Below are positions 8,477 through 63,573 of a stretch of 64,000 nucleotides of DNA, piece by piece. This stretch comes from Solibacillus sp. R5-41. GTDB taxonomy: Bacteria > Bacillota > Bacilli > Bacillales_A > Planococcaceae. The first letter of the stretch is position 1. Each line of letters starts with the position of its first letter. The stretch spans positions 4,044,001-4,108,000 of the forward strand of contig NZ_CP024123.1 in assembly GCF_002736105.1 (NCBI RefSeq). Reading direction: 5' to 3'. The notes beneath the pieces are model-generated. The model was not told the DNA's origin, did no database searches, and was given only the letters and a program-made list of their open reading frames with translations. A program made the position numbers and the translations under genes.

Positions 8477-9205
8477 TTATTCGCCTAAATCGGCGTTGTG
8501 GTAAACACGTTGCACATCTTCTAACTCTTCTAACGCATCGACCATTTTTTCAAATTTTGTTAAGTCATCGCCCGCTAATTCTACTTCTGTCATTGGTAAC
8601 ATTGTCAATTCAGCAACGGCGAATTCTTCCACACCCGCTGCTTTAAAGGCTTCTTGTGTTGCATGGAATTGATCCGGCTCTGTATACACAATAATCGTAC
8701 CTTCTTCATCTATAATATCGCGCGCATCTAAATCGGCTTCCATTAAGATTTCTAGTACCTCATCTTCTGATTTACCTTCTACTCCAAATACAGCTGTTGC
8801 TTGGAACATATGAGCTGCAGAACCACTGACACCCATATTTCCTCCGTTTTTACCGAATGCCGCGCGTACTTCAGAAGCTGTACGGTTAACGTTATTCGTT
8901 AATGCATCAACGATTACCATTGTACCGCCTACACCAAAGCCTTCATAACGCAGCTCGTCAAATTGCTCTTCGCCGCCACCTTTTGCTTTATCAATCGCTT
9001 TTTCAATAATATGTTTCGGTACAGAATACGTTTTTGCACGCTCTAATACTGTTTTTAGTGCGCGGTTTGATTCTGGATTTGGCTCACCCGATTTTGCTGC
9101 TACATAAATTTCGCGACCAAATTTAGCGTTGATACGACTTGTTGCTGCGTCTTTACCTGCTTTTTTTTCTTTAATGTTATTCCATTTACGGCCCACATTA
9201 TTCAC
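8477..9205 (-). CDS. yeeN: YebC/PmpR-family regulatory protein, YeeN type
   Basis: A 242-residue member of the YebC/TACO1 family, reading very closely to B. subtilis YeeN ([20 protein letters not shown] at the N-terminus, [17 protein letters not shown] in the middle, [14 protein letters not shown] at the C-terminus). Family members bind DNA or assist ribosomes at polyproline-like stalls; the YeeN subgroup is less studied. Starts with GTG at 9205 behind AAGGAAG; a GTG three codons later is also possible. Monocistronic. Confidence 0.9.
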
Positions 9206-9250
9206 TCTCTTCCTTAATATATAAAGTAACGTTTCCCTTTTTGAAAACAG

Positions 9251-9359
9251 TTAACCAACTACGCCTTGGCGTAATTGCGTCCAGATTTTTCGAGCACGCT
9301 CGAAAAGCTCCCCTTAAAAATCTATGACAACCACCGAGGCATTAACTTGATTCAGCTGG
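9251..9359. repeat. dispersed intergenic repeat, copy B
   Basis: Shares CTACGCCTTGGCGTAATTG and the 3' block ACCACCGAGGCATTAACTTG with copy A at 5074. The central hairpin is different in sequence (TTTTTCGAGC / GCTCGAAAA, then the outer arm AGATTTTT / AAAAATCT) but is again paired. Lies directly upstream of yeeN. The 50 or so bases after it to 9470 carry no gene. Confidence 0.75.
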
Positions 9360-9569
9360 AGTTTGAACCCCTACCGAATTTAGTGCATATTGCAATCATC
9401 CCACACTTATTGTGGAAGAAGACTTCTGCTGAAGCAAGGTAAAATATTATTTATACTTATTATTATACATAAAGAGTAAAAAAAGATAAATTACTACGCA
9501 AAAATTTATCTACGTTCAACAGAAAATTCCAACTTTTATGGTGAATGGGATATTCGTATTAATCATAAG

Positions 9570-9595
9570 AAAAAACACTCTCTAAATTGAGAGTG
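9570..9595 (-). terminator. terminator of plsC
   Basis: Perfect stem CACTCTC/GAGAGTG with a six-base loop, followed on the minus strand by TTTTTTCTT. It begins just at the plsC stop codon. Confidence 0.85.
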
Positions 9596-9596
9596 C

Positions 9597-10190
9597 TCAT
9601 GCATGTTTGGCTTTTAATTCATTAGTTAAACGTTCTAGCTCAGCTTCTAAATGACGGATTGATTCTTCACGTCCTTCTTTACCACCTTCAACAGAAAATG
9701 GTTTCCCGTAAACGAGATAGCCCTTTTCACGCTTAAATACTGCTTTCACATTTTTCGGACCAATGTAAGCTGCTGGGACAATTTGTGCTTTTGCAAGCTG
9801 TGCAATCGTCACTGCGCCCGCTTTTAATTCCGTATTTTCTGAGCTACGTGTGCCACTCGGGAAAATACCTACAATCTTACCGTCCTTAATTAACTGGCGC
9901 GGTACTTTAATAACACTTGGACCTGGATTTTCACGATCTACCGGAAAAGCATTTAACTTTGTAATGAGCCAGCCTAACCCTTTAATATCGAAAAGCTGCT
10001 TTTTTGCCATAAAATGAATTTCACGAGGCAATACTGATATTCCTAAATTACATATATCAATATAGCCATTATGTGTACAGGCAATAACAAATCCGCCTTC
10101 TTTTGGTACATTTTCAAGGCCATAAACTTTAGCTTTTGCTCCATTGACACCTAAAATTGCTTTGATAATACTTGCGATAAATTTATACAC
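9597..10190 (-). CDS. plsC: 1-acyl-sn-glycerol-3-phosphate acyltransferase
   Basis: A membrane-associated acyltransferase (197 residues) that makes phosphatidic acid from lysophosphatidic acid in phospholipid synthesis. The catalytic H-X4-D is seen as THNGYID near residue 40 and the substrate-binding block as FPSGTRSSE near 110, with GAVTIAQLAKAQIVP after it. GTG start at 10190 behind GGTAGGA. The length is that of the short Firmicutes PlsC. Whether it is the main PlsC of the cell or a paralogue cannot be said from one window. Confidence 0.88.
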   Translation of the reverse strand: MYKFIASIIKAILGVNGAKAKVYGLENVPKEGGFVIACTHNGYIDICNLGISVLPREIHFMAKKQLFDIKGLGWLITKLNAFPVDRENPGPSVIKVPRQLIKDGKIVGIFPSGTRSSENTELKAGAVTIAQLAKAQIVPAAYIGPKNVKAVFKREKGYLVYGKPFSVEGGKEGREESIRHLEAELERLTNELKAKHA

Positions 10191-10256
10191 GTTCGAATCC
10201 TACCTTATATTTATTCTCCCACTATTGTAAGCGAAAAATGACCTTTAATACAATGT

Positions 10257-11147
10257 CTACTTTTTTGGCGTCGTCTTTACAATCGCATCTACTAAAGTAG
10301 GGAGCCAATCCTTTAACTCGCTAAATGTGAAACCGGCTTGCTGTGCTTTTTCCGTTGTCATATACCATGTTGCAGGAATCGCATATGGAGAACGAATTTC
10401 TTCTGTTCCAAGCAGCGCTATTTTCGCACGTTCGCCTGTTGTTTCTTCAATGAGTTCAATTAATCGTTTTAATGAAATGCTCCCATTCGCCGTTGCATTG
10501 ATTGGTCCTTCTATATCATTCAATCCAACCCAAGCTAAAAATTTTGCTGCTTCGGACGCTTGAATAAATGACATTTCAGCATCCATATTCACAAAGCCAA
10601 TTGGTTCATTATTTACAATACGCTCAATATGGAAATGTAGGCGTCTCGTATAATCATCTTCCCCCATGACAATCGGGAAACGTACAGCTGCAACAGGGAA
10701 TTTTGCATGTTTATAAAAAACAGCCTCTGCTAATCGCTTGCCTTCCCCATAAGTAAAGTCTGCTGTATCTCCCATAACGATTTCATAGTGATACGGATCA
10801 AAATCCCCTTCAGCATGCGGCTTTCCATTTGCTTCATACGTCGAAAGTGTCGAAGTAAATACGAGCTTGCCAATCGAGCCGTTAAATATATTACAAAATG
10901 CCTTCGCTTCATTCGGTGAATAGCAAATATTATCGTAAACAACATCAAAGTGGCGACCTGCTACAGCAGCTTTGAACGCATCTTCATCTTGGCGATCTAC
11001 TTGCAAATGCTCGACCTTGTCACCAAATGGGTTTTTAGAAACACCTCTCGTCACAATCGTTACTTGATGATTTTGTTTCAATAATTCCTCCACTAATTTC
11101 TTACCAAAAAATCGTGTGCCACCGAGTACTAAAATCTTTTTCATCAT
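10257..11147 (-). CDS. NAD-dependent epimerase/dehydratase family protein
   Basis: A 296-residue short-chain-type Rossmann protein. The dinucleotide loop KILVLGGTRFFGKKLVE is at the extreme N-terminus. YGEGKRLAE near residue 155 supplies a Tyr and Lys separated by three residues, as in the family active site. The sequence resembles the NAD-dependent epimerase group annotated as isoflavone-reductase-like or CP41-like. Its start abuts the stop of the upstream RlmA-type methyltransferase, so the two are one operon. The substrate is unknown. Confidence 0.8.
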   Translation of the reverse strand: MMKKILVLGGTRFFGKKLVEELLKQNHQVTIVTRGVSKNPFGDKVEHLQVDRQDEDAFKAAVAGRHFDVVYDNICYSPNEAKAFCNIFNGSIGKLVFTSTLSTYEANGKPHAEGDFDPYHYEIVMGDTADFTYGEGKRLAEAVFYKHAKFPVAAVRFPIVMGEDDYTRRLHFHIERIVNNEPIGFVNMDAEMSFIQASEAAKFLAWVGLNDIEGPINATANGSISLKRLIELIEETTGERAKIALLGTEEIRSPYAIPATWYMTTEKAQQAGFTFSELKDWLPTLVDAIVKTTPKK

Positions 11148-11987
11148 CTATTCCCCCATGCCAATTAATAAATCGAAATCAATCGTAATTTCATTAAGCT
11201 GAATATTCTCTTTCTGTTCAATATGCCAGCCCATTGGTGTCATTTCAAGCAATTTGGATACAAGCTCTTCTTTTAAGGGCATCGTATACGTAATTCTTTT
11301 GACTACAGTATTTGCAAAGCTTTCCTTAAAGCGAGCGACCGTTTGTTCATTCGTATAGCTTTCTTTCGTAGAATCCGCAAAAGCTTGCATACGCAATTCT
11401 TTTAAGTAATTTTTCTGTGGGACAATTTTAAGTACTTTACCACCTGGCTTTAAGAGCCGTTTAAACTCCTCATAATTTGCTGGTGAGAGGATATTTAAAA
11501 TGGCATCGAACGACTGTGCGTTGTAAGGGCTATTTGCTAAATCACCAACACACCATATTTCATCTGTATAGTATTTCCCCGCTGCCATAATGCCTTCTTT
11601 TGCGATATCAATGCCGACACCTGTTGCCTGTTCAAGCTGCTGACAAATTCGATGTAGGTGAGAGCCTTCCCCGCAACCCGTATCCAAAATAATTGGGGTA
11701 GGCGCTGTAATTTCCTCAGCAAGGGCTTTTTGTACCATATTATACAATCCACTTTCAATGACTGCATGGCGTGAATCAAAAAGCGCTTTGCTATACATCG
11801 AATTGACTGGGCGATGCAATAAGTTAATATATCCTTGCTTTGCTACATCAAATGAATGATTATTTGGGCAACTCATTTTTCCTTCTTTACTCATCGCCAT
11901 TTGTTGTTTACAAATAGGACAGGCAAATAGTTGAATTTGTTGATTAATTTGTTGAATCGTTAATTCTCGTTTTGATAATAGACCCAT
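11148..11987 (-). CDS. rlmA: 23S rRNA (guanine-N1)-methyltransferase, RlmA family
   Basis: An SAM-dependent rRNA methylase (279 residues). The N-terminal zinc finger of the RlmA/TlrB type is visible as CPICKQQM...CPNNHSFD (residues about 18-45), followed by QGYINLL, a family hallmark. The SAM-binding loop is ILDTGCGEGSHLHRI and a catalytic-region ILNILSPANYEE follows. Members methylate G745 or G748 in hairpin 35 of 23S rRNA; TlrB-type members alter tylosin/mycinamicin susceptibility. Which base is used here cannot be told. Confidence 0.88.
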   Translation of the reverse strand: MGLLSKRELTIQQINQQIQLFACPICKQQMAMSKEGKMSCPNNHSFDVAKQGYINLLHRPVNSMYSKALFDSRHAVIESGLYNMVQKALAEEITAPTPIILDTGCGEGSHLHRICQQLEQATGVGIDIAKEGIMAAGKYYTDEIWCVGDLANSPYNAQSFDAILNILSPANYEEFKRLLKPGGKVLKIVPQKNYLKELRMQAFADSTKESYTNEQTVARFKESFANTVVKRITYTMPLKEELVSKLLEMTPMGWHIEQKENIQLNEITIDFDLLIGMGE

Positions 11988-12057
11988 GATAAATTCTCCT
12001 TAATACTTGTTCGATTTTATCGTACCATAATCCTGGACATTACCAAAAATTCAAACG

Positions 12058-12105
12058 AAAAAAACCATCACTTATAAATTGTCTTGAAGGACCGTAAGTG
12101 ATGGC
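12058..12105 (-). terminator. terminator of the polysaccharide deacetylase gene
   Basis: Stem AGCCATCACTTA / TAAGTGATGGTT followed on the minus strand by TTTTTTCG, directly after the deacetylase stop. Confidence 0.8.
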
Positions 12106-12111
12106 TATTAA

Positions 12112-12993
12112 CTATGTTTGTAATTCTACTATTTCACTCGCTGTTACAAATTCATAATCTTGATTGATTAAATAGTTAATGACCGCATCTAAAGACTCCG
12201 CCGTTTCACTATGAATATCATGCATTAATATAATTCCGTTGTCTTTTGCTTGCTCTTTTACGTAAGCAACGGTTTTCTCTGGTGTACGATGTTTCCAATC
12301 CATTGTATCAACACTCCACATGACGGCTTCCATTGATGTTTGGCTGCGCACACTAGCATTAGTCGCTCCATATGGTGGGCGATACATGTTCGGATATTTT
12401 CCTGTTACTTTGTAAATTGCTTCATTCGTTTTAGTTAGCTCTTCTGTAATTTGTTCATCTGAGAGCTTCGTAAAATTGGCATGGCTCCAGGAATGGTTGG
12501 CTATTTCATGACCTTGTTCTGCCGCTCGACTTACGACTTGTGGGTGTTTTTCAACATTTTGTCCGAGTACAAAAAAGGTTGCCTTTATATCATACTGAAG
12601 AAGCACTGCTAATATTTGCTCCGTCACTTCTGGATGAGGGCCATCATCAAATGTCAGCGCTATTTTCTTCTTTTCACGATCAACTTCATCTGGATTTTTT
12701 TGCGGCTCTTCCATTTCCTTTTTTTCGATAACATCAGTTGGGTTGCGATATTCCTTCAGCTCATAGAAGGGAATCCGTGCTACTTCACTTTGACGGATTG
12801 CTATTTGTTTCGCATCAATAGTATCTGCTGAGTCGTTTAAAAATGCGAGAAATGCAAGCTGTTGGGTTAAGCTTGGATGTGTGAGATTTAGTGCATTTCC
12901 CTGCGGTTGCGGGCTTGCTTCTATGTCTATTTGTAGAAAAACTACAAACATTAATCCGAGCATCGCAACAAATGCCCCAATTTTTTTACTCAT
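12112..12993 (-). CDS. polysaccharide deacetylase family protein (NodB domain), secreted
   Basis: A 293-residue protein with an N-terminal hydrophobic signal or anchor (KIGAFVAMLGLMFVVFLQ), a linker of about 80 residues, then a NodB homology domain. The metal and catalytic motifs are present: LTFDDGPHPE (about 113), HSWSHANF (about 170) and RPPYGATN (about 208). These enzymes remove N-acetyl groups from peptidoglycan or chitin-type sugars at the cell surface. The NodB core is C-terminal, as in Bacillus PdaA-like and YlxY-like proteins. Monocistronic. Confidence 0.88.
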   Translation of the reverse strand: MSKKIGAFVAMLGLMFVVFLQIDIEASPQPQGNALNLTHPSLTQQLAFLAFLNDSADTIDAKQIAIRQSEVARIPFYELKEYRNPTDVIEKKEMEEPQKNPDEVDREKKKIALTFDDGPHPEVTEQILAVLLQYDIKATFFVLGQNVEKHPQVVSRAAEQGHEIANHSWSHANFTKLSDEQITEELTKTNEAIYKVTGKYPNMYRPPYGATNASVRSQTSMEAVMWSVDTMDWKHRTPEKTVAYVKEQAKDNGIILMHDIHSETAESLDAVINYLINQDYEFVTASEIVELQT

Positions 12994-13087
12994 TTTTGAC
13001 CTCCGAATATGTATTACCCATTAGACGTATCAAGAGGTCAAAAAGTTGATAATAGAGCAAAAAAAATTATGTTTTACCAACATCCTA

Positions 13088-13137
13088 TAAAATAAAGGAT
13101 GCCATCTTGATTTTCTATCAAAATGACACCCTTCATT
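13088..13137 (-). terminator. possible terminator of the SDR gene
   Basis: An imperfect hairpin between GGATGCCATCTTGAT and ATCAAAATGACACCC with several mismatches. The gene that would use it stops at 13180. The T-run is weak, so this is tentative. Confidence 0.35.
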
Positions 13138-13179
13138 TATCGATTTTCTTCTTACATATTTGTTTAGCAAAAAAACATT

Positions 13180-13938
13180 TTAATACGCTGTCCACCCAGC
13201 ATCTGCTGTAATGACAACACCATTTACAAAATCAGAATCAGCCGACGCTAAAAATAACGCGACACGAGCAATATCTTCTGGCTCGCCATTTCTTGGATTA
13301 AAATTAGCACCCGCCATCGCACGTGATACTCCGTGCTCATTAGGATTTTGGAAGCTTGCACTAATATTTGTATTCACGCCTCCAGGTGCAATCGCATTAC
13401 ATTTAATACCTTCCGTTGCATATTGAAAAGCGGTATTTTTCGTTAATCCAACAACTGCATGCTTAGCTGCTGTATAAGCTGCTCCAGCACGTGATCCATA
13501 TAAACCACCAACAGAGGCAATATTAATAATTGTCCCTGCGCCTTTTTCAAGGAAAATTGGCATCGCTTGGCGGGTAGCACGCATTACCCCTTTTACATTC
13601 ACATCAAAAACTCTATCCCATAGTTCATCTTTTATATCACCAACTGGAGAGAAGTCATCCATAATACCGGCATTATTCACTAAAATATCTAATGTACCAT
13701 AGCTGTTTTGTGCGGCTTTAATTAGCTTATGAATATCCGCTTCTATCGCTACATTAGCGGTTACAGCTGTTGCTACTCCACCAAAAGCTGTAATTTCAGC
13801 AACTGTATTGCCCGCCCCTTCAAGTGTTAAATCCGATACAACTACTTTTGCTCCCTCTTTCGCAAACAGAATGGCAATTGCTTTTCCCATTCCTGATGCA
13901 GCACCCGTTACAACGGCAACTTTATCTTGTAACCTCAC
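13180..13938 (-). CDS. SDR family NAD(P)-dependent oxidoreductase
   Basis: A classical short-chain dehydrogenase of 252 residues. The cofactor loop TGAASGMGKAIA, the NNAG motif (LVNNAGIMDD) and the catalytic YTAAKHAV are all seen, with a catalytic Ser in NIASVGG. Family length is normal. RBS AGGAGG precedes the ATG. It stands alone between the deacetylase and the NERD gene. Related proteins are often annotated as glucose 1-dehydrogenase or 3-oxoacyl reductase; the substrate cannot be assigned. Confidence 0.85.
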   Translation of the reverse strand: MRLQDKVAVVTGAASGMGKAIAILFAKEGAKVVVSDLTLEGAGNTVAEITAFGGVATAVTANVAIEADIHKLIKAAQNSYGTLDILVNNAGIMDDFSPVGDIKDELWDRVFDVNVKGVMRATRQAMPIFLEKGAGTIINIASVGGLYGSRAGAAYTAAKHAVVGLTKNTAFQYATEGIKCNAIAPGGVNTNISASFQNPNEHGVSRAMAGANFNPRNGEPEDIARVALFLASADSDFVNGVVITADAGWTAY

Positions 13939-14013
13939 GAAAAAAACCTCCTCAAAGAAATGCTTACTAATTCCCTCTATTAAACATTTATCATAAAAAT
14001 TCCTTTTTTACAC

Positions 14014-14050
14014 AAAAAAACCAAGTAAATTATTTATAATCTACTTGGTT
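14014..14050 (-). terminator. terminator of the NERD gene
   Basis: Stem AACCAAGTA/TACTTGGTT followed on the minus strand by TTTTTTTGTG, just past the NERD gene stop. Confidence 0.8.
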
Positions 14051-14059
14051 ACGCTAAAT

Positions 14060-14740
14060 TTAATTTGAAGAAAGAACGGTTTTCTTTACTTTTGGTGCGT
14101 TATTTTTCACTTGCATCATGCCTTCTAAAGCAGAATAAATTGTTTGAATGTCCGTTTCACTTAAACGCTGCTGTTGCAAGTTTTTCGTCCACTTTTTAAT
14201 GGCCGACGATTTAATCACGTCTACATTCTCAGAAAAGAGCTCGATATTTTGGAAAGAGCAATCATTTGAAAATAAAACGAGTGATTCAAATACTTCTTCA
14301 TTCACTTCAGCTAAATAATCCCGTAAAGCAAAGTTTAATCTTTTCGTTTCATGTACCGGATTATTAAACAATTTTGATTTATCTTTATGTAGTAGTTGCG
14401 TCCACTGAAGATCTTGTTCACGCCCATTAATCCAACCGGACATTTCTAGTATATTGATTACATAAATACCCGTTTCATGAATAAACACAGCATCAATTGG
14501 TTGTAATGCTTCATTTGTAGGAAGTTGTACATTTACTACTATTTTATGTGGACCTTTCACTTCATCCAATATCCCTACAAGCTTATGTGATGTACGAACT
14601 TTTTTATTTGTCCACACATCTAAATAGGAATAACCCGTCAATTTATAAAAGGTTGTATTGTCATGTTGATAAGTCTTCATCGCAAAAAAGCCTAAAATAG
14701 CAATAAGTACGACCATAAAAAGTAACGTCATCGTGCTCAC
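14060..14740 (-). CDS. NERD domain-containing membrane-anchored protein
   Basis: A 226-residue protein with an N-terminal membrane helix (about residues 3-20) followed by a NERD (nuclease-related) domain: IDAVFIHETGIYVINI, then SGWINGREQDLQWTQ and VHETKRLNFALRDYL. The GIYVIE-like strand normally carries a catalytic acid; here it reads GIYVINI, so activity is uncertain. The fold and order match NERD proteins of Bacillus. Function in this group is unknown; nucleic acid processing is proposed from the fold. Confidence 0.72.
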   Translation of the reverse strand: MSTMTLLFMVVLIAILGFFAMKTYQHDNTTFYKLTGYSYLDVWTNKKVRTSHKLVGILDEVKGPHKIVVNVQLPTNEALQPIDAVFIHETGIYVINILEMSGWINGREQDLQWTQLLHKDKSKLFNNPVHETKRLNFALRDYLAEVNEEVFESLVLFSNDCSFQNIELFSENVDVIKSSAIKKWTKNLQQQRLSETDIQTIYSALEGMMQVKNNAPKVKKTVLSSN

Positions 14741-14856
14741 TCCTTATATGCATAGTTATCCATTAGTTTATCAAATATCTTAACCCTTTACTATGCTCCT
14801 ATGGACTACATTCTCTCGGTCATTTGACAAATAAATCTTGTGAGACAATCAAAAAG

Positions 14857-15579
14857 TCACTGTTTTCCCGTAATTTTTTGTAGAGAGTTTGCCCCTTCTA
14901 ATATTGGATATAATTGTGATAGTGTATCAATCACATAAGTTGGTTGAATCATAGCATGCGCCTCTTTACGTGTAGGGTTCAACCAGCATGTATCAATTCC
15001 CGCCCCTGCTCCACCTATAATATCCGCGCTATAAGAATCTCCAATGATCATCGTTTTCGCAGAATCAAATTGTGGAATGCGTTCAAAAACATAATCGAAA
15101 AATGGTTTCATCGGCTTTTGATAGCCTGTATCCTCCGAGACAAACACTTGTTTAAAGTACGGTGCAAGCCCCGTTACTTGCATACGTTTTACTTGAGTAT
15201 CTGAACTACCATTGGATGTAATATATAGCTCATAATTCGGTGCAATGGATTGAATCAATTCAAACGCACCTTCAACAAACACTTTACTTTCTGTTAAATA
15301 GCTACGGAACTCTGCATCTAACGCACGACCGTCTACCTTTTCTCCGAAATACTCAAACGTTTTCGCAAATCGAATTTCCATTAATTCTTCTCGCGTAATT
15401 TGTCCCTCTTCAAGTGCCTGCCAAAGCTCTGCATTAATTCCTTTATACACTTGGCGAACTTCCTCTGTAAGTGGGAATTGATGTGCTTCAAACAATTTCG
15501 GTAAAGCGATTTGTTCCGCCGCATTAAAGTCGAGCAATGTATCATCTAAATCAAATAATAAAAATTCATATTGTTTCAT
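14857..15579 (-). CDS. HAD-superfamily noncanonical pyrimidine nucleotidase, YjjG family
   Basis: A 240-residue HAD phosphatase. Motif I is FDLDDTLLDF at residues about 9-18, motif II is YITSNGSSD near 120, and motifs III/IV appear as QKPMKPFF and MIIGDSYSADIIGGAGAGID. The cap domain sits between motifs I and II. Length and motif wording match YjjG-type 5'-nucleotidases, which remove noncanonical pyrimidine nucleotides. Monocistronic by spacing. The substrate is inferred from family similarity. Confidence 0.85.
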   Translation of the reverse strand: MKQYEFLLFDLDDTLLDFNAAEQIALPKLFEAHQFPLTEEVRQVYKGINAELWQALEEGQITREELMEIRFAKTFEYFGEKVDGRALDAEFRSYLTESKVFVEGAFELIQSIAPNYELYITSNGSSDTQVKRMQVTGLAPYFKQVFVSEDTGYQKPMKPFFDYVFERIPQFDSAKTMIIGDSYSADIIGGAGAGIDTCWLNPTRKEAHAMIQPTYVIDTLSQLYPILEGANSLQKITGKQ

Positions 15580-15789
15580 TTTATATCTCCATTTCCAATC
15601 ATCTAACTTATTAAAGTTATCTTATTTTTTAAATCGTTCAACTATTTGCACTGTTTCTATTTACTTTATTCTATATTTCAGATAGCATTTCTTTATCTTC
15701 ACTTAGTGGAACTCTAGCAAACATTCTATATTAGAATAATATCAATTACTCTAAGGTGCAATGGATTACATAGAAAGAAGGTATTACAT

Positions 15790-16560
15790 ATGGGGTTTGA
15801 ATTAGATCCACAGCTTATCATTATTTTAATTTGCTTTGGCTTTCTTGCTGCATTTATTGATTCAGTTGTTGGCGGCGGCGGGCTTATTTCCTTACCTGCC
15901 TTACTATTCACTGGAATGAGTCCTTCTGCCGCGGTCGCAACGAATAAACTGGCAGGTACGATGGGTTCTTTAACAAGTACCATTTCATTTTATCGCTCGG
16001 GAAAACTCGATATTAAATCCGTCATCAAGTTTTTCCCACTCACATTTTTCGGTGCAATGATTGGGGCATGGATCGTTCATTTACTTGATCCCAATTTACT
16101 CAAGCCATTGATGCTTATTATGTTAGCTTCGGTTGCTATTTTTACTATTTTCAAAAAAGATTGGGGCAATATATCAGCGGTAAAGAAACTCTCAAAAACA
16201 AAGTTTATTTTATTTTTGATCGTTATTACCCTCATCGGATTTTATGATGGCTTTTTAGGTCCAGGTACAGGTACTTTTTTAATTTTTGCTTTTTTAATCG
16301 TAGGCTATGATTTCCTAAAGGCTGCCGGAAATGCCAAGTTATTAAACTTTGGCAGTAATATAGGGGCTCTTTTAATGTTTATTAGCCTCGGACAAATTAA
16401 TTATGCCGCTGGTTTTATTATGGGAGCAGCGCAAATTGCAGGGGCCATTGTAGGTTCCCAATTTGCGATTCGACGAGGAAGCGGCTATGTACGTATCCTG
16501 TTTATCGTTGTTACTGTAACGCTCCTTATAAAAAATGCATATAATTATTTTTTAAAATAA
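15790..16560 (+). CDS. TSUP (TauE/SafE) family anion transporter
   Basis: A 256-residue polytopic permease with the duplicated TSUP arrangement. It has DSVVGGGGLISLPALLFTG in the first half and GFYDGFLGPGTGTFLIFAFL in the second, both diagnostic. The start ATG at 15790 has AGAAGG 8 bases upstream. Members move sulfite, sulfonates or other organic anions across the membrane. No sulfur gene is adjacent, so the substrate is not indicated. A strong terminator follows. Confidence 0.88.
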   Translation: MGFELDPQLIIILICFGFLAAFIDSVVGGGGLISLPALLFTGMSPSAAVATNKLAGTMGSLTSTISFYRSGKLDIKSVIKFFPLTFFGAMIGAWIVHLLDPNLLKPLMLIMLASVAIFTIFKKDWGNISAVKKLSKTKFILFLIVITLIGFYDGFLGPGTGTFLIFAFLIVGYDFLKAAGNAKLLNFGSNIGALLMFISLGQINYAAGFIMGAAQIAGAIVGSQFAIRRGSGYVRILFIVVTVTLLIKNAYNYFLK

Positions 16561-55945: not shown

Positions 55946-56254
55946 TTACTTAAATGTAGTTAACTCTTCTGAAATATCATTTAAAAAATCTTTCTCAAAC
56001 CTATATATGTGTTTACCTTCAGTAATACTTAATATTATTACGTCTGATATCATTCCATCACTTAAAGAAACCGATTTTATAGAATTAATTTTTATTTGAT
56101 TCTCTAACAACGAATCAAGCGATACATTGGCTTCTATTTGAGTAAACAGGTCTTTTAATTGTGTTTGTGGAATTTCGTTTTCTGTTTTATTCATAACAGC
56201 ATTTATTAGATTTAATAGGTCTTCTTCATCTAAGATTCCCTCTGTAGCAGCCAA
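55946..56254 (-). pseudogene. 5'-truncated gene of unknown function
   Basis: An ORF of 102 codons with no family I recognise; it reads TEGILDEEDLLNLINAVMNK with a C-terminal helix FLNDISEELTTFK. The TTG at 56254 lacks an RBS, and the frame stays open upstream for about 18 codons (VEKQSLDRPLAATEG) before a stop, with no ATG or RBS. It looks like the 3' part of a longer gene cut off close to the Tn7-like end, presumably by deletion within the older element or its flank. Confidence 0.5.
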
Positions 56255-56312
56255 CGGTCGGTCTAAACTCTGCTTTTCTACGTATGTCTTAAAACGTCTT
56301 CAATTGGAATTA

Positions 56313-56346
56313 AAAAACTCGACCCATGAAAGGATCGAGCTTTTTT
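56313..56346. terminator. terminator beside the older Tn7-like end
   Basis: Stem AAAAACTCGACCC / GGATCGAGCTTTTT (one mismatch) with T-runs on both sides. It is 48 bases inside the left-facing end and separates it from the truncated gene. Confidence 0.8.
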
Positions 56347-56393
56347 AATTTGCTGTAATCAATTTATTTATATGACGCATGTTGTCGAATGTC

Positions 56394-56420
56394 AGTACCC
56401 GACTTTGTTGTCATTCTACA
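56394..56420 (-). mobile_element. end of an older Tn7-like element, facing left
   Basis: On the minus strand from 56420: TGT, six bases, then ACAACAAAGTCGGGTACT. This is the same layout as the right-facing end at 56426 (23 of the first 30 bases agree) and as the ends of Tn7 itself (TGT, six bases, ACAAAATAGTTGGGAACT). Only one TnsB-type site is found on this side, so the element behind it seems mostly deleted. Confidence 0.75.
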
Positions 56421-56425
56421 ATCGT
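56421..56425. other. 5-bp spacer between two Tn7-like ends (ATCGT)
   Basis: Exactly five bases lie between the two facing terminal TGT/ACA ends. Tn7-family insertion duplicates 5 bp of target, so this is the expected target site duplication of the second insertion. The matching copy at the far end is outside the window. Confidence 0.7.
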
Positions 56426-56560
56426 TGTTCAAAGACAAAAAAGTCGGGAACTTAGAAACGCTCAAAACCGCATTCTTACGTTTTGTGAAACACTTCACGA
56501 AAAAGAAAGTCAGGAACTAGGATTTTTTCAACATGACAAAAAAGTCGGGAACTAATGAAT
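56426..56560 (+). mobile_element. left end of the resident Tn7-like transposon
   Basis: Terminal TGTTCAAAGACAAAAAAGTC at 56426. Three TnsB-type sites in the same orientation: 56434-56452 (GACAAAAAAGTCGGGAACT), 56499-56518 (one base longer, AGTCAGGAACT) and 56535-56553 (identical to the first). Three separated sites is the Tn7 left-end arrangement. The element extends to the right past the window end and includes the nuclease gene, two TniQ genes, tnsC and tnsB. Confidence 0.85.
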
Positions 56561-56661
56561 CATATGCCCCTGAAAAATCATGGTATGGAATCCTAGCGAA
56601 TTTAAAAAAATTAAATGGTGAAAATAAAATTCATTTGCTCACTTTATAAAAAAGTGAAAGA

Positions 56662-56899: not shown

Positions 56900-57766
56900 A
56901 TGGGTAGTTTAACCGAAGATGAAGTAATAGTATATTCACCTGTTCAACCAGAGGGAAATTCAAGAGAGGAAAATGTTGGTATCTTCATCGATTATGACAA
57001 TGTGTATTGGACTTTAATGAACAATCATAAACATAATCCTAATTCTAATGAATCAGAAAAAAATATTTTTGAAAAACTATGGAATACATACGGAAGAGAA
57101 AATGTTAGAACATTTAAAGCATATGCTGATTTCGATAAGGTCGATACTAATTTAACAAGCCTCCAAAAGAAACGAGTTCAAATACGTCATGTTTATTCCA
57201 ACGGAAAAGATGAAGACAAACGAAAAAATTCGTCAGATATAGAACTTAGCATTGATGTAATTGAAAGTACATATCGTGAATTAAATATCAATCGCTATGT
57301 TATTGTTACGGCTGACAGTGACATGATTCCATTAGTAAGTCGTCTTATGTATAAGGGTAAAATCGTTGATCTTTATTACTTAGAAGACGCAGTTTCCGAT
57401 GGAAAAAATAACATAACAACTTATGCAAATAATTTTTATAACTTATATGATTTTTTAGGATTAAGTATCATAGAATATAAAGCAGAGGAATATGTAGATG
57501 CTGCAATTGGCATTATCTACAACTGGAGTTTAGAAACAAGAAATCAGGATTTTGCGTTAGGCTATAAAATTTTGATTAATACGTTAGAAAAGAATTTAAA
57601 TGTTCCTACCAATACCACAAAAGAAATTATTTCTATTTTGGAAAAAAATAACCACATTTTAGACGAGGATAAAAAAACTTCTAAAGGAACATACAAAGGA
57701 AAGATTTTAAATCTTGAATCAGAAAAAGTTAAAGAAGTAATTTCGGAAGAACTTTCCGTCAAATAA
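56900..57766 (+). CDS. NYN domain-containing nuclease (cargo gene)
   Basis: A 288-residue protein with an N-terminal NYN/PIN-like domain (about residues 25-185). The conserved acidic residues are in VGIFIDYDNVYWT, KNSSDIELSIDVIEST and VIVTADSDMIPLVSRLMYKGK. The C-terminal 90 residues form a winged-helix/LOTUS-like region (EIISILEKNNHILDEDKKTS). NYN proteins cut RNA, and in mobile elements they often serve defence or addiction roles. It is the only gene between the left end and the tniQ genes, read toward them. RBS AAAGGAGAG. Confidence 0.8.
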   Translation: MGSLTEDEVIVYSPVQPEGNSREENVGIFIDYDNVYWTLMNNHKHNPNSNESEKNIFEKLWNTYGRENVRTFKAYADFDKVDTNLTSLQKKRVQIRHVYSNGKDEDKRKNSSDIELSIDVIESTYRELNINRYVIVTADSDMIPLVSRLMYKGKIVDLYYLEDAVSDGKNNITTYANNFYNLYDFLGLSIIEYKAEEYVDAAIGIIYNWSLETRNQDFALGYKILINTLEKNLNVPTNTTKEIISILEKNNHILDEDKKTSKGTYKGKILNLESEKVKEVISEELSVK

Positions 57767-58125: not shown

Positions 58126-59997
58126 TTAATATTTTATAGTGAATATATCCCTTAACTTTTCTTCAATTCTTGGTGTGATATTTGAAATGCAAATTTTCTC
58201 CAAGATTTTCGTTTTCGAAATGCCTTCTCCTTTGTCTAAACTATCTTTTACAAACCAATCAATTCGGCGAAGGTTGAAGTTTTCGTAATCTTCTAATCGA
58301 CTATTTATTAATTGATTTGATAAAGGTAATTTACTTGTATATCTTTGAAAAAAGCCAATATAATTAATTTCCTTTTCGATTGCACGTTTAGTAATGCGGA
58401 TGGGAGGGGAAATTGCGTATAATTTTTTAATAGTTTCGTTAATTTTTTTTACAAACTCCAGGTCAAGTTTACTCCAATCTTTCTTATCGTAAGTAGTTCG
58501 ATCTCTTTTTTTCCTTGATTTAAAAGTGACTTCCACTGGTTCAGGAAAATGATTTTCGAGCCATTCTCGATCATTGTAAGATATCCATTGGTACTCTTTG
58601 GGATGTTTACCTTGAAAGAAAGAACGAGTTTGTTGCGGGTTTTCTTTAATTTTTCCCTCCCAAAATTTCCGCATTTCGTTTCGTTTCTTTTTAAAATCAA
58701 TTTCATCTTCTAAATCATTTTGCCAACGCTCGTACCACGCTTTTAAGGTTTTAGAATCCACATTGAATACTCTGGAAATTGCTGAAAAATTAAAATCATA
58801 CTTTGGAACAAGAAAGAGAAGTTCCTTTTTAAAAAGGCTTCCGTAATTCAAGACTCTAGAGCGATTAAATTTTTCTTCATTACTTTTTTCGGGTCCTTTT
58901 CGCATATAGGTGAATTCGCAATAAGGGCATTCAAAAATGCCTAATGGAAGCCCGTCTTTTTTATTTGTTTTAATTTCAATATCCTTTATATAAGGCTGAT
59001 TATAAAAAAGACACACAGAACTTTGACAAATCCAAGGACCACACCCAAATGGTGTAAATTTTTTAATATCATCATAAAAAGCCTCTTTTAAAGAAGCACC
59101 CAACGTATAATTTAATGCCAAAATACGAATAGGATGCACAAATACCCTATAATTTTTTGATAGCAGATTAGCAATCCAATCAACTTCATTAGGATCTAAT
59201 TTATTCTGTTCGATAAAGGTTTTAGGTAAAGTAGTATAGAGCTCTTTAACAAATTTTTGTCGATTGAATATAGAATTTAAATTCATCCACGATCTTTCCA
59301 TAAATTTTTGCACATACCAATCGTGTACTTTTTTATGCGAGATTGCCTGAAAAGGTTGATTAAATAGGTAACATGTTTCGTTCGCTAAATAAATATAGAA
59401 ATCTTTTTCATCATCAGGAATCCACTCATTTGCTATAACCTTCATGTTTTCTGTTAATGGAATAAAAATTTGCTTTCGGATTTTTGTATTTACAGGAACA
59501 TCAGAAATGGAAAGATAGTTGTAATGAATATGACACATACGAACGCTAGGGAGTTGGTGCATTATATTCCAGTACCCTTCTCCATGTTTTTCTATTGATT
59601 CTTTCAAACATCTATCACAAAAACGTAGATACTTTAAATTTTCAATTGAACTTGAGGCTAAACCAATATAGTGAGATAATTTCCCCGTGATCAAAGTTTC
59701 GTTTTCAATGGATTTTGATATCTCATCAAACTTTTTGGTGGTTAAGAATGGAGTGTAGTAAAGAATACTTGAATGATTGAACAACCAATCTTTGAATGTA
59801 TAAGGATGTTCGAATCGTAAGTTCCTTTGAATTTGTTGCAATTGGACTGGAAACTCTACGTTTCCAGGGTTAACCCTTTTTTCATAAAGAAAATCAATGG
59901 TGGTAGAATCTTTTAACGAACCAATACGAACATGAAATCTAGAAAGTAAACTATGAAAAGTTTCATTCTTATAAGGTGTGGGGAAAAAACTGATCAT
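58126..59997 (-). CDS. TniQ/TnsD-family target-selection protein (second copy)
   Basis: A 623-residue Tn7-type target selector. The TniQ domain starts FFPTPYKNETFHSLLSRFHVR. Zinc ligands are in LRFCDRCLKES followed by VRMCHIHYNYL, and a second cluster is in CGPWICQSSVC and FECPYCEFTYMRKGP. Its ATG overlaps the stop of the first selector by four bases. Such proteins bind an attachment site and recruit TnsC. Two different selectors in one element suggest two target pathways. Confidence 0.85.
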   Translation of the reverse strand: MISFFPTPYKNETFHSLLSRFHVRIGSLKDSTTIDFLYEKRVNPGNVEFPVQLQQIQRNLRFEHPYTFKDWLFNHSSILYYTPFLTTKKFDEISKSIENETLITGKLSHYIGLASSSIENLKYLRFCDRCLKESIEKHGEGYWNIMHQLPSVRMCHIHYNYLSISDVPVNTKIRKQIFIPLTENMKVIANEWIPDDEKDFYIYLANETCYLFNQPFQAISHKKVHDWYVQKFMERSWMNLNSIFNRQKFVKELYTTLPKTFIEQNKLDPNEVDWIANLLSKNYRVFVHPIRILALNYTLGASLKEAFYDDIKKFTPFGCGPWICQSSVCLFYNQPYIKDIEIKTNKKDGLPLGIFECPYCEFTYMRKGPEKSNEEKFNRSRVLNYGSLFKKELLFLVPKYDFNFSAISRVFNVDSKTLKAWYERWQNDLEDEIDFKKKRNEMRKFWEGKIKENPQQTRSFFQGKHPKEYQWISYNDREWLENHFPEPVEVTFKSRKKRDRTTYDKKDWSKLDLEFVKKINETIKKLYAISPPIRITKRAIEKEINYIGFFQRYTSKLPLSNQLINSRLEDYENFNLRRIDWFVKDSLDKGEGISKTKILEKICISNITPRIEEKLRDIFTIKY

Positions 59998-61896
59998 ATC
60001 TTCTCCCCTTTGTTTTTTGCTGTGGAATACTCTGAAACCTTTAACGAAATAAAGCGTTTTACCTTATTTGATAATCCAGTATGTCGTAAACCTGCTTTTC
60101 TGTATATTTGCCATTCAATAATCGGTTCGCACCCATGTTTTAATTTATCAATAATAAAGTTTGCCCGCCGTATTTGAAACGATTCCATACTTTCTTGAAC
60201 TTCATAAATGTAATTCATAGTTTTCGGTAGCTTATCCGCTTTTTTCTGTAATAATGATAACCTATCCATTTTCCTTCCAACAGAAGCGATTGTTATTCTT
60301 TTTAGTTTTTCAACGACCACATCCCAATTTTGAACCACTTTCATAACTTGATTTACCAATTCCATATCCCGTTTTTCCCAATCAATCCGCTGATTTGGAG
60401 GGTGATTTCTTTTCCCTTTGGGAGAAAATTCGTTAAGCCATTCCCAATCATTTCGATATAAAAAGGCGTAAACATTAGGTGCAATTTTTCGCAATTCTGT
60501 TTTTGACCTTTCAGGAAATTCCTCCTGAAGTTCTAACCATATATTTTTCCTCTCAAGCAATTGTTTGTTCAATTGCCGCAAAACAGTGTCTCCGTTCTTT
60601 TTTTCTACATTCGGAAGTTTCCACGAAACACTTAATTCCAACTCGACAGCATATTTTTTGATTGTAGCACGGTCTGCCTGCATTTCCTTCGCAATTTCTG
60701 TAAGAGAGTATTCTTCATTAACCAACTTCACAATTTTTTCTTTCCAAACATGACCGAAATCTTTAATTGTCCCAATGCGGTAACGGTCACCCTTATTTAT
60801 GTCAGGTCCCCTTCTTGAAAATACAAAGCCGCATTCGCATCGGAATGTTCCTACTGGATTTCCTGTGTCGTAACACCTTGTGATCGCTAAATCTGTTATA
60901 ACTGGTTTATGGGAATTTGGACATGCAACATTTAAGCATAGCCAAGGTCCTTTTCCGAAAGGATTATATTCCTCCTTATCAAAAAAATGTTCCAAATCGG
61001 TATCCAAAAACATCATGACTAGTAGGTGCCGAATTGGATGAAAAGATTTGCGGTGTTTTTGAAAAATCATCGTTAGCCAATCCGATTCCTCAAAAAATAT
61101 AGGTGATTGCAATAGTTCTAAGCTGCGGTCGGAAAATTTCGAACCAAAACTTTGGTACAACTTGTCCCGTTTCAAAAAGCCATTGACGCTCGCATATCCC
61201 TGTTGCTTCAATAACTCCAAGTATTTATTTCGAATCGTATTTTCCATTGATTGGAGGTAAATGTTTTTTAGTAGAGATTCAGTTGCTTTCGCCAGCTTTA
61301 TCAAAAGATGAACCTCATTTTTATTTAACCAATTAAGATTAACCTTTTTTCTTTCAATAAATGGTGAAGCGACAATATACTCATGTTGGTTTTGAATTTT
61401 CATGGAAACGATTGTTTCCTCTAGTGCCGTTTCATGTTTCGGGCAGATAAAGACACCTGGAGCCTGATGAACTCGACGCCAATACGTTTCACCATAAGCA
61501 TCCATATCTTCTTTGATACAATCCCCGCATACCCAAAGGTTGTCCTTTAATTTCACATTGCTTGCTACTACTCCTATTCGAGTGTGGATGGCTCCACCCT
61601 TATTCCCCATCATAGATTGCTTAACTTGCTTTGCTTGTTTTGGAAGCAGGAAGGCAGAGTAATAAGGATACATTGTATAGTTGAAAATTAATTGTTCTGC
61701 ATCCCAATAATCTCCTGTATTCCTTAAGAAGGTATTTAAATTAGCAGGTAAGCCCCAAACTGCTCTAACTGTCCTTTTTCCAAACAGTTCTTCTGTTGTC
61801 ATTTTAGGACTCGTATTACCAGACCTAACATGGTACCTTGCTAGAACACTGTATAATAATTCATCAGGATATGGCGTTGGAAACCAATGCAGCATG
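59994..61896 (-). CDS. tnsD: TniQ/TnsD-family target-selection protein (first copy)
   Basis: A 633-residue protein whose start MLHWFPTPYPDELLYSVLARYH is the TnsD/TniQ hallmark. The frame reaches 61961, but GGAGGAGGG 8 bases before ATG 61896 fixes the start. Zinc ligands: LWVCGDCIKED, then FICPKHETALE; second cluster in FGKGPWLCLNVACPNSHKP and FRCECGFVFSRRGP. The C-terminal half has a helix-turn-helix (SLTEIAKEMQADRATIKKYA). It overlaps tnsC by 33 bases. It probably directs insertion to a fixed chromosomal site. Confidence 0.87.
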
Positions 61897-63573
61897 TTCA
61901 CCCTCCTCCCAGAACTCTTCTGAAGGTTGTTTAACAATATTTTTTTGGAGAAACAATTCATGAACAGATAGCTTCTTCTGTCTTGCTTCTTTCATTAGAC
62001 CACCTAAATAATTTCCACTTATTTGGCTAACTTTCTTTTTCTTATTTGTGTTCTCCGTCTTTATTTCATCCTTATCAATAAGGAGTTTTACTGCTTCTTT
62101 TAGCAACGTCGGTTTTTCGACATCCTCTCCAAATTTGTTTAATACGCTCTTTACAGCACGCTCAATTTCCTTTGAATCAAAATCCATCGATAACAGTTGC
62201 AAGGTCACATCTTCTAAAAGAGATTGTTCCGCTTTCTCTCTTTTTTGTTGCTGTAATTTCTTTTGAATGCGAATTTTTTCTTGCAAGTCAACGGAAGCTT
62301 TGTATCTTTCCATTTCTTCATCTATATCAATGGGACGAATATCCTCATACTTGGCAATTTCACTTGGAATACCTGACTTCAAGGCATCTAACATTGGTTT
62401 AACTAATCTTAAACTATCATTCGCCACTTTTTTCATGATTTTCTTACTTATTTTTTCTGTGCCTGTCGAAATCGCACTGACCTGAGATAACATAAAAAGT
62501 TTGATTGCAATATCAATAATTCCCTGACTTTCTTCGTAAATAAAATCACTGAGTTCCTCAGTCAAAGGTGTGTAATTTGCCGTCCATTGATACTCCCACA
62601 TTCCCTCCACAAATAACTCCCATGACATATCTTTTGGCATTTGTGACCAGACCATATCTCCTTGACCGCTTCCACGTCTTGCTTGACGAAATTCACTTTG
62701 CAAAATAGAAATCGCTTTATTGGTACCGACCATCAACACAGGAATGCCAATGGTATTTACCAACGTAACAAAAAAGTTTAGCATTTTATCCGAACCGCCA
62801 CTTTTACTAAGGCTAAGGTGCTGAATTTCATCAATAATCAGCAAACCAACCCCATGAAGGCTTGCAAGGTGTGCCATTCGTTGAAGCATTAAATCTGTCG
62901 TATTTCTTGAGGCTCCGAACTTATTTAGATAGTTGGAACCTAATAGTCGGTCTAATTCAGAGAAAAAACTTATACATAATCCTTTTAACGACCCATCAAA
63001 TGGGCACTCTAACTTCAGCCAACTAATTTGTGTGAAAATGAATGGTTTTCCCTTATATTCACGATGCTTAATTAATTGTGGATAAAAAGATAAAACACGT
63101 TCAATTGCGGTTGATTTTCCAATACCCGAAAGACCAATAATCGTAAATCCAGCAGCTGTCCGTTTTGCTTCTGTTTGATAGTTTTTTAAAAAGTTACCCG
63201 CTTTTATCGCTTGATAACTTTCGTGCACCCTCATGACTTCTTCTCTCTGCATTGGATTTCGGTGTAAATAACCTTGGCGAATTGCCCTTGAAATTCGTTG
63301 TTCTAAATCCAAGTGTGTTTCAAACGGTTGAAAGTATTGAAATAATCTCTGGACACAATGAAAACGGTAATTAGAGTTTAGAGCACGTTCTTTTTCATCA
63401 AACGATGGGAAAACTGATAATTGTTCGATTACTTCATCCTCCGTAAATATTGGCGGCAGTGCCTCAATTAAAGGATTAAATTCATAATCTTGTACAATTT
63501 GTTCACTATATATAGCATCTACCATTTCTTTTCCGTACAATAGTTGCCTATCATTAGTGACTAACTCTTGCAT
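61864..63573 (-). CDS. tnsC: TnsC, AAA+ transposition regulator
   Basis: A 569-residue AAA+ ATPase. Walker A GLSGIGKSTAIERV is near residue 146 and Walker B LLIIDEIQHLSL near 243, with a sensor MVGTNKAI and arginine-rich RQARRGSGQGD. The N-terminus (YSEQIVQDYEFNPLIEALP) and Lys-rich C-terminal tail fit Tn7 TnsC, which is 555 residues. It passes the target signal from TniQ/TnsD to the transposase. Overlaps tnsB by 20 bases, so the transposition genes are one transcript. Confidence 0.9.
   Translation of the reverse strand: MQELVTNDRQLLYGKEMVDAIYSEQIVQDYEFNPLIEALPPIFTEDEVIEQLSVFPSFDEKERALNSNYRFHCVQRLFQYFQPFETHLDLEQRISRAIRQGYLHRNPMQREEVMRVHESYQAIKAGNFLKNYQTEAKRTAAGFTIIGLSGIGKSTAIERVLSFYPQLIKHREYKGKPFIFTQISWLKLECPFDGSLKGLCISFFSELDRLLGSNYLNKFGASRNTTDLMLQRMAHLASLHGVGLLIIDEIQHLSLSKSGGSDKMLNFFVTLVNTIGIPVLMVGTNKAISILQSEFRQARRGSGQGDMVWSQMPKDMSWELFVEGMWEYQWTANYTPLTEELSDFIYEESQGIIDIAIKLFMLSQVSAISTGTEKISKKIMKKVANDSLRLVKPMLDALKSGIPSEIAKYEDIRPIDIDEEMERYKASVDLQEKIRIQKKLQQQKREKAEQSLLEDVTLQLLSMDFDSKEIERAVKSVLNKFGEDVEKPTLLKEAVKLLIDKDEIKTENTNKKKKVSQISGNYLGGLMKEARQKKLSVHELFLQKNIVKQPSEEFWEEGEHAALVSNAIS

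What the first reader, a model, noticed from the sequence alone, without database searches (positions are those of the whole stretch)
56394..56452. Two Tn7-like ends back to back with exactly 5 bp between them
The sequence shows TGT + 6 nt + ACAA-type ends in opposite directions, at 56420 (minus) and 56426 (plus). They agree at 23 of 30 bases and are separated by ATCGT. Tn7-family transposition makes 5-bp duplications, so this reads as a second insertion directly beside an older element at one attachment site. The older element is represented only by one end, a terminator and a truncated gene. Tandem stacking implies that target immunity did not block the second insertion, or that the elements were divergent enough to ignore each other.
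Basis: partly seen in the sequence, partly recalled or inferred. Interest (0 to 1): 0.85.

Follow-up and report, generated by a model that had tools for sequence, protein, structure and literature searches.

The report
Transposon landed on a predecessor's stump
A Tn7-like jumping element sits beside the gene glmS at exactly the place where an older relative had landed, and a stump of that relative's end is still there; such layering is common in related bacteria and offers a way to study when Tn7-type elements stop excluding one another.

Summary
Two Tn7-type ends face away from each other at 56420 (minus) and 56426 (plus) with ATCGT between. Beyond the window, the resident's far end (window coordinate 71068) is also followed by ATCGT, 19 bp from the glmS stop codon. 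So one 14,643-bp Tn7-like element (tnsABC plus two tnsD) occupies attTn7. The left-facing end is not part of it: it is the right (glmS-facing) end of an earlier insertion at the same place.

Two corrections. The truncated gene is chromosomal (last 102 aa of a LytR-CpsA-Psr-type gene, intact in relatives); the older element survives only as 120-166 bp. Its end keeps one TnsB-type site where the resident has five.

Stacking is common: 8 (perhaps 10) of 21 resolved glmS elements in the family abut an older right end, mostly of a foreign type. G000, and apparently G199 in another genus, are near-homotypic, both on single-site ends. Right ends with tns genes carry 4-5 sites (6 of 6); of 28 right-type ends without a tns set, 27 carry one. 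I read this as tandem-array collapse in dead elements, which may also release target immunity (inferred). The event is of a known kind.

The parts
55946..56254 (-). C-terminal 102 aa of a chromosomal LytR-CpsA-Psr-type gene, N-terminal part lost; not part of the older element
   Evidence: Open frames of 342-352 aa match it in the 15 other genomes held for the genus; nucleotide homology to G011, G001, G002, G012 and G008 stops at 56253 in each; the G011 homologue is PF03816, E 1e-23; the 102-aa piece itself has no Pfam hit
56255..56300 (.). 46 bp of unassigned sequence at the joint between the chromosomal gene and the old right end
   Evidence: Homology to the chromosome stops at 56253; homology to the resident's right end starts near 56302
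56301..56420 (-). Remnant of the older element's right end: terminal TGT, one TnsB-type site, TGACATTCGAC, hairpin CTCGATCC...GGGTCGAG followed by a run of T
   Evidence: Aligns with the resident's right end once four 20-bp repeats are left out, 87 of 113 aligned positions; one site against five; hairpin -19.4 kcal/mol, z -5.4 (the simple terminator scan did not list it)
56421..56425 (.). ATCGT, 5-bp target duplication, left copy
   Evidence: Right copy at L004 17069-17073 = window coordinates 71069-71073
56426..56575 (+). Left end of the resident element with three dispersed TnsB-type sites (offsets 9, 75, 110)
   Evidence: near-identical spacing in G014, G233 and G156
56900..57766 (+). Cargo: NYN-domain protein
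   Evidence: Pfam PF01936, E 1.2e-16
58126..59997 (-). Second tnsD/tniQ gene of the resident element
   Evidence: PF15978 and PF06527; no separate counterpart in the stretches read of five sister elements
59994..61961 (-). tnsD, probable glmS selector
   Evidence: PF15978 E 1.2e-104; PDB Tn7 TnsD E 3.6e-35; 63-71% identical to the only tnsD of five sister elements, which lie at glmS
61864..63573 (-). tnsC
   Evidence: PF13401, PF05621
63554..64000 (-). tnsB, running past the window to coordinate 65728 (L004 9554-11728); then tnsA at L004 11761-12558, right end with five tandem TnsB-type sites at L004 17068 (window coordinate 71068), ATCGT, glmS at L004 17093-18934
   Evidence: PDB Tn7 TnsB E 3.9e-114; TnsA E 1.4e-49 with E, D and K at the aligned catalytic positions (which positions are catalytic is recalled); glmS by Pfam; sites

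Best explanation
attTn7 downstream of glmS was used twice. Shown by sequence: the resident Tn7-like element is bounded by ATCGT on both sides, and immediately outside its left ATCGT lies the right end of another element pointing the same way. Inferred: an older relative inserted first, its right end next to ATCGT and glmS. It then lost its body; everything from about 120-166 bp inside its right end into a chromosomal gene was deleted. Its tandem array of TnsB sites shrank to one, while the hairpin just inside the end stayed. TnsD, whose binding site in the end of glmS is not touched by insertion, later directed a second element to the same place, between glmS and the stump, duplicating ATCGT. 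Target immunity did not stop it, most likely because one variant TnsB site is too weak to hold enough TnsB (inferred, not tested).
For: ATCGT at both ends, 19 bp from the glmS stop. Sister elements also have matching 5-bp flanks: G014 GCGAA, G233 CGAGT, G156 TTATA, A. thermarum CCATG, and the more distant G125 TCATC (no glmS hit in its stretch). For G014 the unoccupied sequence is visible in G006, nearly so in G005. The old end is of right-end type: TGACATTCGAC and the hairpin match the resident's right end; left ends look different. Single-site right ends of this type lie next to glmS in G059 and G160 with no tnsABC hit in about 16 kb on the inside, and in G143, where the contig ends 0.7 kb inside, so such stumps exist without this resident. 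Other stacks: of 21 elements with a resolved left end (of 30 with glmS in view, of 43 stretches read) 8 have an older right end 3-7 bp away at 18/26 or better, against 9 of 8400 control positions; 2 more are weaker.
Against: No left end of the older element was found in the genome (up to 2-3 mismatches) or in window and L004 (up to 5), and no second TnsB at E <= 1e-80, so its former completeness is inferred. No intact copy of it was found in relatives. No tandem array of its site variant (AACAAAG...GTAC) exists in 261 genomes (up to 3 mismatches), so an ancestral multi-site array is inferred from relatives with the other variant. G059 holds two such ends 97% identical over 343 bp, which could mean that a single-site end can move or be copied.
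Confidence: 0.92

Rival explanations
1. Single element: the left-facing motif is a duplicated or outer part of the resident's own end.
For: The two right ends of G000 are related (87 of 113 aligned positions). G199 in another genus also has a left end of the resident's type abutting a single-site right end.
Against: The 5-bp duplication brackets the resident without the left-facing motif. Sister elements G014 and A. thermarum show no TnsB-type end outside their left ends; G156 and G233 show none either, though G156 has an inner right-end hairpin of a foreign type there and G233 a weak hairpin match. The same motif lies next to glmS in G059, G143 and G160. Most other stacks join ends of unlike types.
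Confidence: 0.03
2. The single-site right end with its hairpin is not the remnant of a full element but a small unit in its own right: a non-autonomous element end, or a hairpin kept as the terminator of glmS.
For: A conserved site variant in several genera (17 of 261 genomes match the old-end pattern, some of them by resident-type ends; none in the reversed controls) and no multi-site array of that variant. Duplicated 343-bp copy in G059. G257 has a 1.8-kb element with no tns hit, a 3-site left end, a 1-site right end and TTTAC on both sides. The hairpin folds well in both G000 ends. Hairpins without any TnsB site remain outside the left ends of G156 (91% over 57 bp to a foreign right end) and G041 (97% over 31 bp to its own right end).
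Against: Single-site ends occur in the resident's site variant too (G073, G158b, G142b, G233int, G156int). G158b looks like the start of a first site joined to the end of a last one (by eye). No unit of constant length was seen. Retention of the hairpin for glmS would not conflict with the best explanation.
Confidence: 0.12
3. Chance resemblance.
For: None found.
Against: 0 of 100 shuffles with up to 3 mismatches; the two-ended pattern is matched in 2 of 261 genomes and its reversed control in none.
Confidence: 0.005

Closest known systems
Tn7 and Tn7-like elements at attTn7 (glmS)
   Same: TnsA, TnsB, TnsC, TnsD, 5-bp duplication, TGT ends, tandem TnsB-type sites at the right end and dispersed ones at the left, right end towards glmS
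   Different: Two tnsD genes; tandem 20-bp sites where Tn7 has four partly overlapping 22-bp sites (PMC11406308, passages). Dual tniQ-tnsD loci are themselves common (PMC10293859, passage)
Genomic islands made of several Tn7-like elements at one site
   Same: One element beside another, with several left and right ends. [quoted passage not shown]
   Different: Here the older partner is reduced to one single-site end, and the two insertions share one 5-bp target
Tandem insertions by CRISPR-associated transposons
   Same: The target site is not destroyed by insertion; tandem products are limited by target immunity, and orthogonal systems evade it (PMC11702153, passages)
   Different: Natural, protein-guided, at glmS; the older end has decayed

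Membership tests
Tn7-like transposon (resident element) | TnsA endonuclease | tested here: met
   Pfam PF08722/PF08721; PDB 1f1z E 1.4e-49
Tn7-like transposon (resident element) | TnsB transposase | tested here: met
   PDB 7pik Tn7 TnsB E 3.9e-114
Tn7-like transposon (resident element) | TnsC AAA+ regulator and TnsD/TniQ selector | tested here: met
   PF13401, PF05621, PF15978, PF06527; PDB TnsD
Tn7-like transposon (resident element) | 5-bp target duplication at both ends | tested here: met
   ATCGT twice
Tn7-like transposon (resident element) | Insertion downstream of glmS with the right end proximal | tested here: met
   19 bp after the stop; tnsA is the tns gene nearest the glmS end and the tns genes read away from it
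Tn7-like transposon (resident element) | Several TnsB sites at each end, tandem at right, dispersed at left | tested here: met
   5 and 3 sites by motif; binding itself not tested
Tn7 proper | TnsE | not tested
   No TnsE profile was run; not claimed as Tn7 proper
Tn7-like transposon (older element) | Right end with TGT and TnsB-type site at the attTn7 position | tested here: met
Tn7-like transposon (older element) | Own left end, tns genes and second duplication copy | tested here: not met
   No left end of this type beyond the resident's; no second TnsB at E <= 1e-80 (other tns genes not sought genome-wide); so it is filed as a remnant of a Tn7-like end, not as an element

The most novel reading that the evidence does not exclude
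The tandem TnsB array of the right end is the switch that closes and reopens attTn7. While an element lives, selection keeps four or five sites and immunity holds. Once its tns genes die, the 20-bp repeats collapse by slippage, typically to one site, while the dispersed left-end sites mostly stay. Immunity is gone, so even close kin can insert at the same place. glmS neighbourhoods are then layered records, with site number as a rough clock of death, and the hairpin inside the end outlives the rest, perhaps because it serves as terminator of glmS.
Probability: 0.3. Interest if true: 0.6.

Novelty: new member of a known kind. Interest (0 to 1): 0.45.

Why it matters
Target immunity is established in the laboratory, but how it fails or expires in nature is less clear. 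This site and its relatives give a natural experiment: the stacks found mostly join unlike types, and the near-homotypic ones sit on a right end reduced to one TnsB-type site. That makes a simple prediction testable (immunity as a function of site number), and it warns that element boundaries at glmS must be checked for older stumps before cargo is assigned.

Tried and rejected
Older element's left end elsewhere in the genome: only the three known ends match exactly; hits with 1-2 mismatches are as frequent as with the reversed control, and the one 1-mismatch hit at 620666 (L008) was judged by eye to be coding-like. The segment between the LytR-type gene and glmS in G011 as an intact flank: its genes are scattered in G000, so it does not date the deletion, and downstream of glmS in G011 other repeats occur, so no ATCGT empty site was seen. 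G156 as a second clean case: its junction lies inside a larger element with outer duplication TTATA and unequal inner 5-mers, so it is not counted as a stack. The first idea, that old ends are random decay, was dropped in that form after the same single-site variant turned up in several genera. An array of that variant: none (0 of 261). The search for related loci in genome contigs gave only an Anoxybacillus thermarum sister (78%) and a distant Bacteroidales hit. In one search three left-end candidates (G033, G154, G015; 7-11 of 26) were dropped as chance and six elements had none. In one search G070 (16/26 at 2 bp) was dropped because G052 and G064 share that flank, so it looks chromosomal; the G058 score there is in a register shifted by 2 bp. 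Of the 47 rows, G099 and G127 were dropped as chance, one G140 row (C56) was not examined, and 11 are left-type; its reversed control gave 4 hits in 261 genomes.

Full report
Place. The window is G000:C1:4044001-4108000 of a 4.28-Mb single-contig genome. I took the following 10 kb (L004 = G000:C1:4098001-4118000; window coordinate = L004 + 54000).

Observation. A right-type end faces left from 56420 and a left-type end faces right from 56426, with ATCGT between. The pattern is not chance. The resident's other end is at L004 17068, followed by ATCGT and, after 19 bp, the glmS stop. The resident is 14,643 bp: NYN gene, two tnsD, tnsC, tnsB, tnsA, about 4.5 kb of small ORFs, right end. TnsA, TnsB and TnsD match solved Tn7 proteins. 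Orientation is the Tn7 one: the right end, upstream of the tns genes, is next to glmS.

The left-facing end. It is a right end. Its inner part (TGACATTCGAC and a hairpin) matches the inner part of the resident's right end, and left ends look different. When four of the resident's five 20-bp repeats are left out, the two ends align along their length, 87 of 113 aligned positions identical. So the old end carries one TnsB-type site, with two variant bases (AACAAAG, GTAC).

What is left of the older element. The ORF at 55946-56254 is the last 102 aa of a chromosomal gene; matches lie in open frames of 342-352 aa in the 15 other genomes held for the genus, and the G011 copy is of the LytR-CpsA-Psr family. 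DNA homology stops at 56253 against each of five relatives. The older element is therefore at most 56255-56420, and 56301-56420 can be assigned. A deletion joined the inside of its right end to that gene.

Is stacking general? In 261 genomes of the family, TnsB relatives (E <= 1e-80) occur in 48 genomes, 52 matches. I read stretches for 42 of these genomes plus Anoxybacillus thermarum: 43 stretches (not read: G034, G140, G145, G150, G198, G241). glmS was in view in 30; a left end sharing the right end's 5-bp flank was resolved in 21 (three further candidates rejected, six had none). Of the 21, eight have an older right end 3-7 bp from the left end with 18 or more of 26 bases matching a panel of right ends (G000, G058, G056, G077, G142, G072, G066, G149), against 9 of 8400 random positions. 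Two more are weaker (G176 17/26, G148 16/26; 67 of 8400 controls reach 16). Read by eye, the spacing is 5 bp in five of the ten (G000, G058, G176, G056, G148) and 3, 3, 4, 6 and 6 bp in the others, as expected if TnsD placement varies by a base or two. Of the other 11, compared with inner right-end sequences, G156 has a foreign right-end hairpin 9 bp outside its left end (91% over 57 bp) and G041 a hairpin 97% identical over 31 bp to its own right end's; both lack TnsB sites there. G233 and A. thermarum give weak matches and seven give none. In G041 the glmS side begins with the other half of that hairpin (by eye), so there the element may simply have split a terminator, as in G014.

Types. 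In the TnsB-site part the old end of G000 matches its resident at 16 of 18 bases; the other nine stacks give 6-12 of 18 (G058 in a shifted register). So stacks are mostly between unlike types, which fits the statements that orthogonal systems evade immunity (PMC11702153, passages) and that TnsB bound at the ends confers it (PMC4321384, passages; the same paper found multicopy mini-Tn7 insertion at closely spaced sites, against strict immunity). G000 is the near-homotypic one of the ten. G199, in another genus, has a like join (left end of the resident's type against a single-site right end, 3 bp), but only tnsD fragments were found there, and its 5-bp flank was not matched next to glmS.

Site number. 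Right ends with a tns set of this clade: G000 5, G014 4, G233 4, G236 4, G156 4, A. thermarum 5 by the count (four in tandem plus one at offset 102): 6 of 6 have at least four. The 47 rows hold 28 right-type ends without a tns set on their inner side. Of these 20 were scored in the panel (one site each; the second site counted for G142a is G142b), six more in the first part of that call (G083, G084 twice, G248a, G257a, G223) also have one, G241 has two, and G199 (second base changed) has one by eye: 27 of 28 with one. How much of the inside was seen differs: about 5-18 kb for most, but 0.1 kb in G083, 0.7 kb in one G143 end and 1.5 kb in G223; for G233int and G156int the resident's tns genes lie on the other side. 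These ends share ancestry, so the counts are not independent events. Left ends: with tns sets 3, 3, 3, 3, 2; without 3 (G257), 3 (G199), 3 (G142), 2 (G156 inner), 1 (G143). Tandem repeats are lost, dispersed sites mostly kept, which points to repeat slippage after selection ends. Older ends of other types, by eye: about 1 (G176), 2 (G058, G056, G077), 3 (G066, G148), 4 (G149, where tnsA and tnsB are still beside it); G056 (older tns set present, tnsA split) is an exception to a simple link with tns loss.

Against the simple collapse story. The old end's variant is shared by ends in several genera, yet no tandem array of that variant exists in 261 genomes. G059 has two copies 97% identical over 343 bp, one followed by sequence that looks like part of another right end (by eye). 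G257 has a 1.8-kb element with no tns hit, TTTAC on both sides and a one-site right end. These leave room for a non-autonomous class or copying by recombination.

Mechanism. Shown: two insertions sharing one 5-bp target, decay of the first, one site where the resident has five. Inferred: TnsD targeting of glmS by the first tnsD gene (the only tnsD seen in five sister elements, all at glmS); repeat loss as the cause; loss of immunity through loss of TnsB sites. How Tn7 immunity depends on site number is not known to me from any call.

Literature. Passages seen: PMC11406308, PMC10293859, PMC12452197, PMC8649781, PMC4321384, PMC11702153, PMC8190619. In the listings of six paper searches (open-licence papers only) I saw no title or abstract start on right-end site collapse in remnants; that is a limited search. 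Parks and Peters' papers on Tn7 islands are recalled, not read.

Verdict. Real, correctly read in its main point, and an instance of a known kind of event; the added value is the measured frequency of stacking, the bias towards unlike types and the site-number contrast.

Noticed in passing
58126-59997: Second TnsD/TniQ gene with only about 25% identity to the first; the five sister elements show a single tnsD. Its target site is unknown.
   Followed up: partly
L004 13366-14070: Cargo ORF of 234 aa with a near-exact internal duplication of about 90 aa.
   Followed up: no
L216 (G059:C4:9001-29000): A 343-bp copy of a single-site right end, 97% identical, lies next to glmS and runs into what looks like part of a different type of right end.
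   Followed up: partly
L262 (G257:C37:150001-163000), 157500-159297 of the contig: A 1.8-kb element with no tns hit at glmS, TTTAC at both sides, three sites left and one site right.
   Followed up: partly
L085-L087 (G156:C18), contig 256434-256597: Inside the resident element a 153-bp pair of left and right ends remains, flanked by further end-like sequences.
   Followed up: partly
L126/L127 (G056:C51) and L128-L130 (G149:C8): Two Tn7-like elements in tandem beside glmS: two tnsABCD sets in G056; in G149 the older one shows tnsA and tnsB before the contig ends.
   Followed up: partly
L059 (G011) 8600-15990 against G000: Genes between the LytR-type gene and glmS in the nearest relative are scattered over several places in G000, so the glmS neighbourhood looks like a rearrangement hot spot.
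   Followed up: partly
L263 and L264 (G084:C2): The same single-site right-type end with hairpin occurs at two loci with the same flank and no glmS or tns hit in 13-14 kb.
   Followed up: no
G041 and G156 left flanks (stretches L137/L138 and L085-L087): Hairpins nearly identical to inner right-end hairpins remain outside the left ends without TnsB sites; right-end hairpins may serve as glmS terminators.
   Followed up: partly
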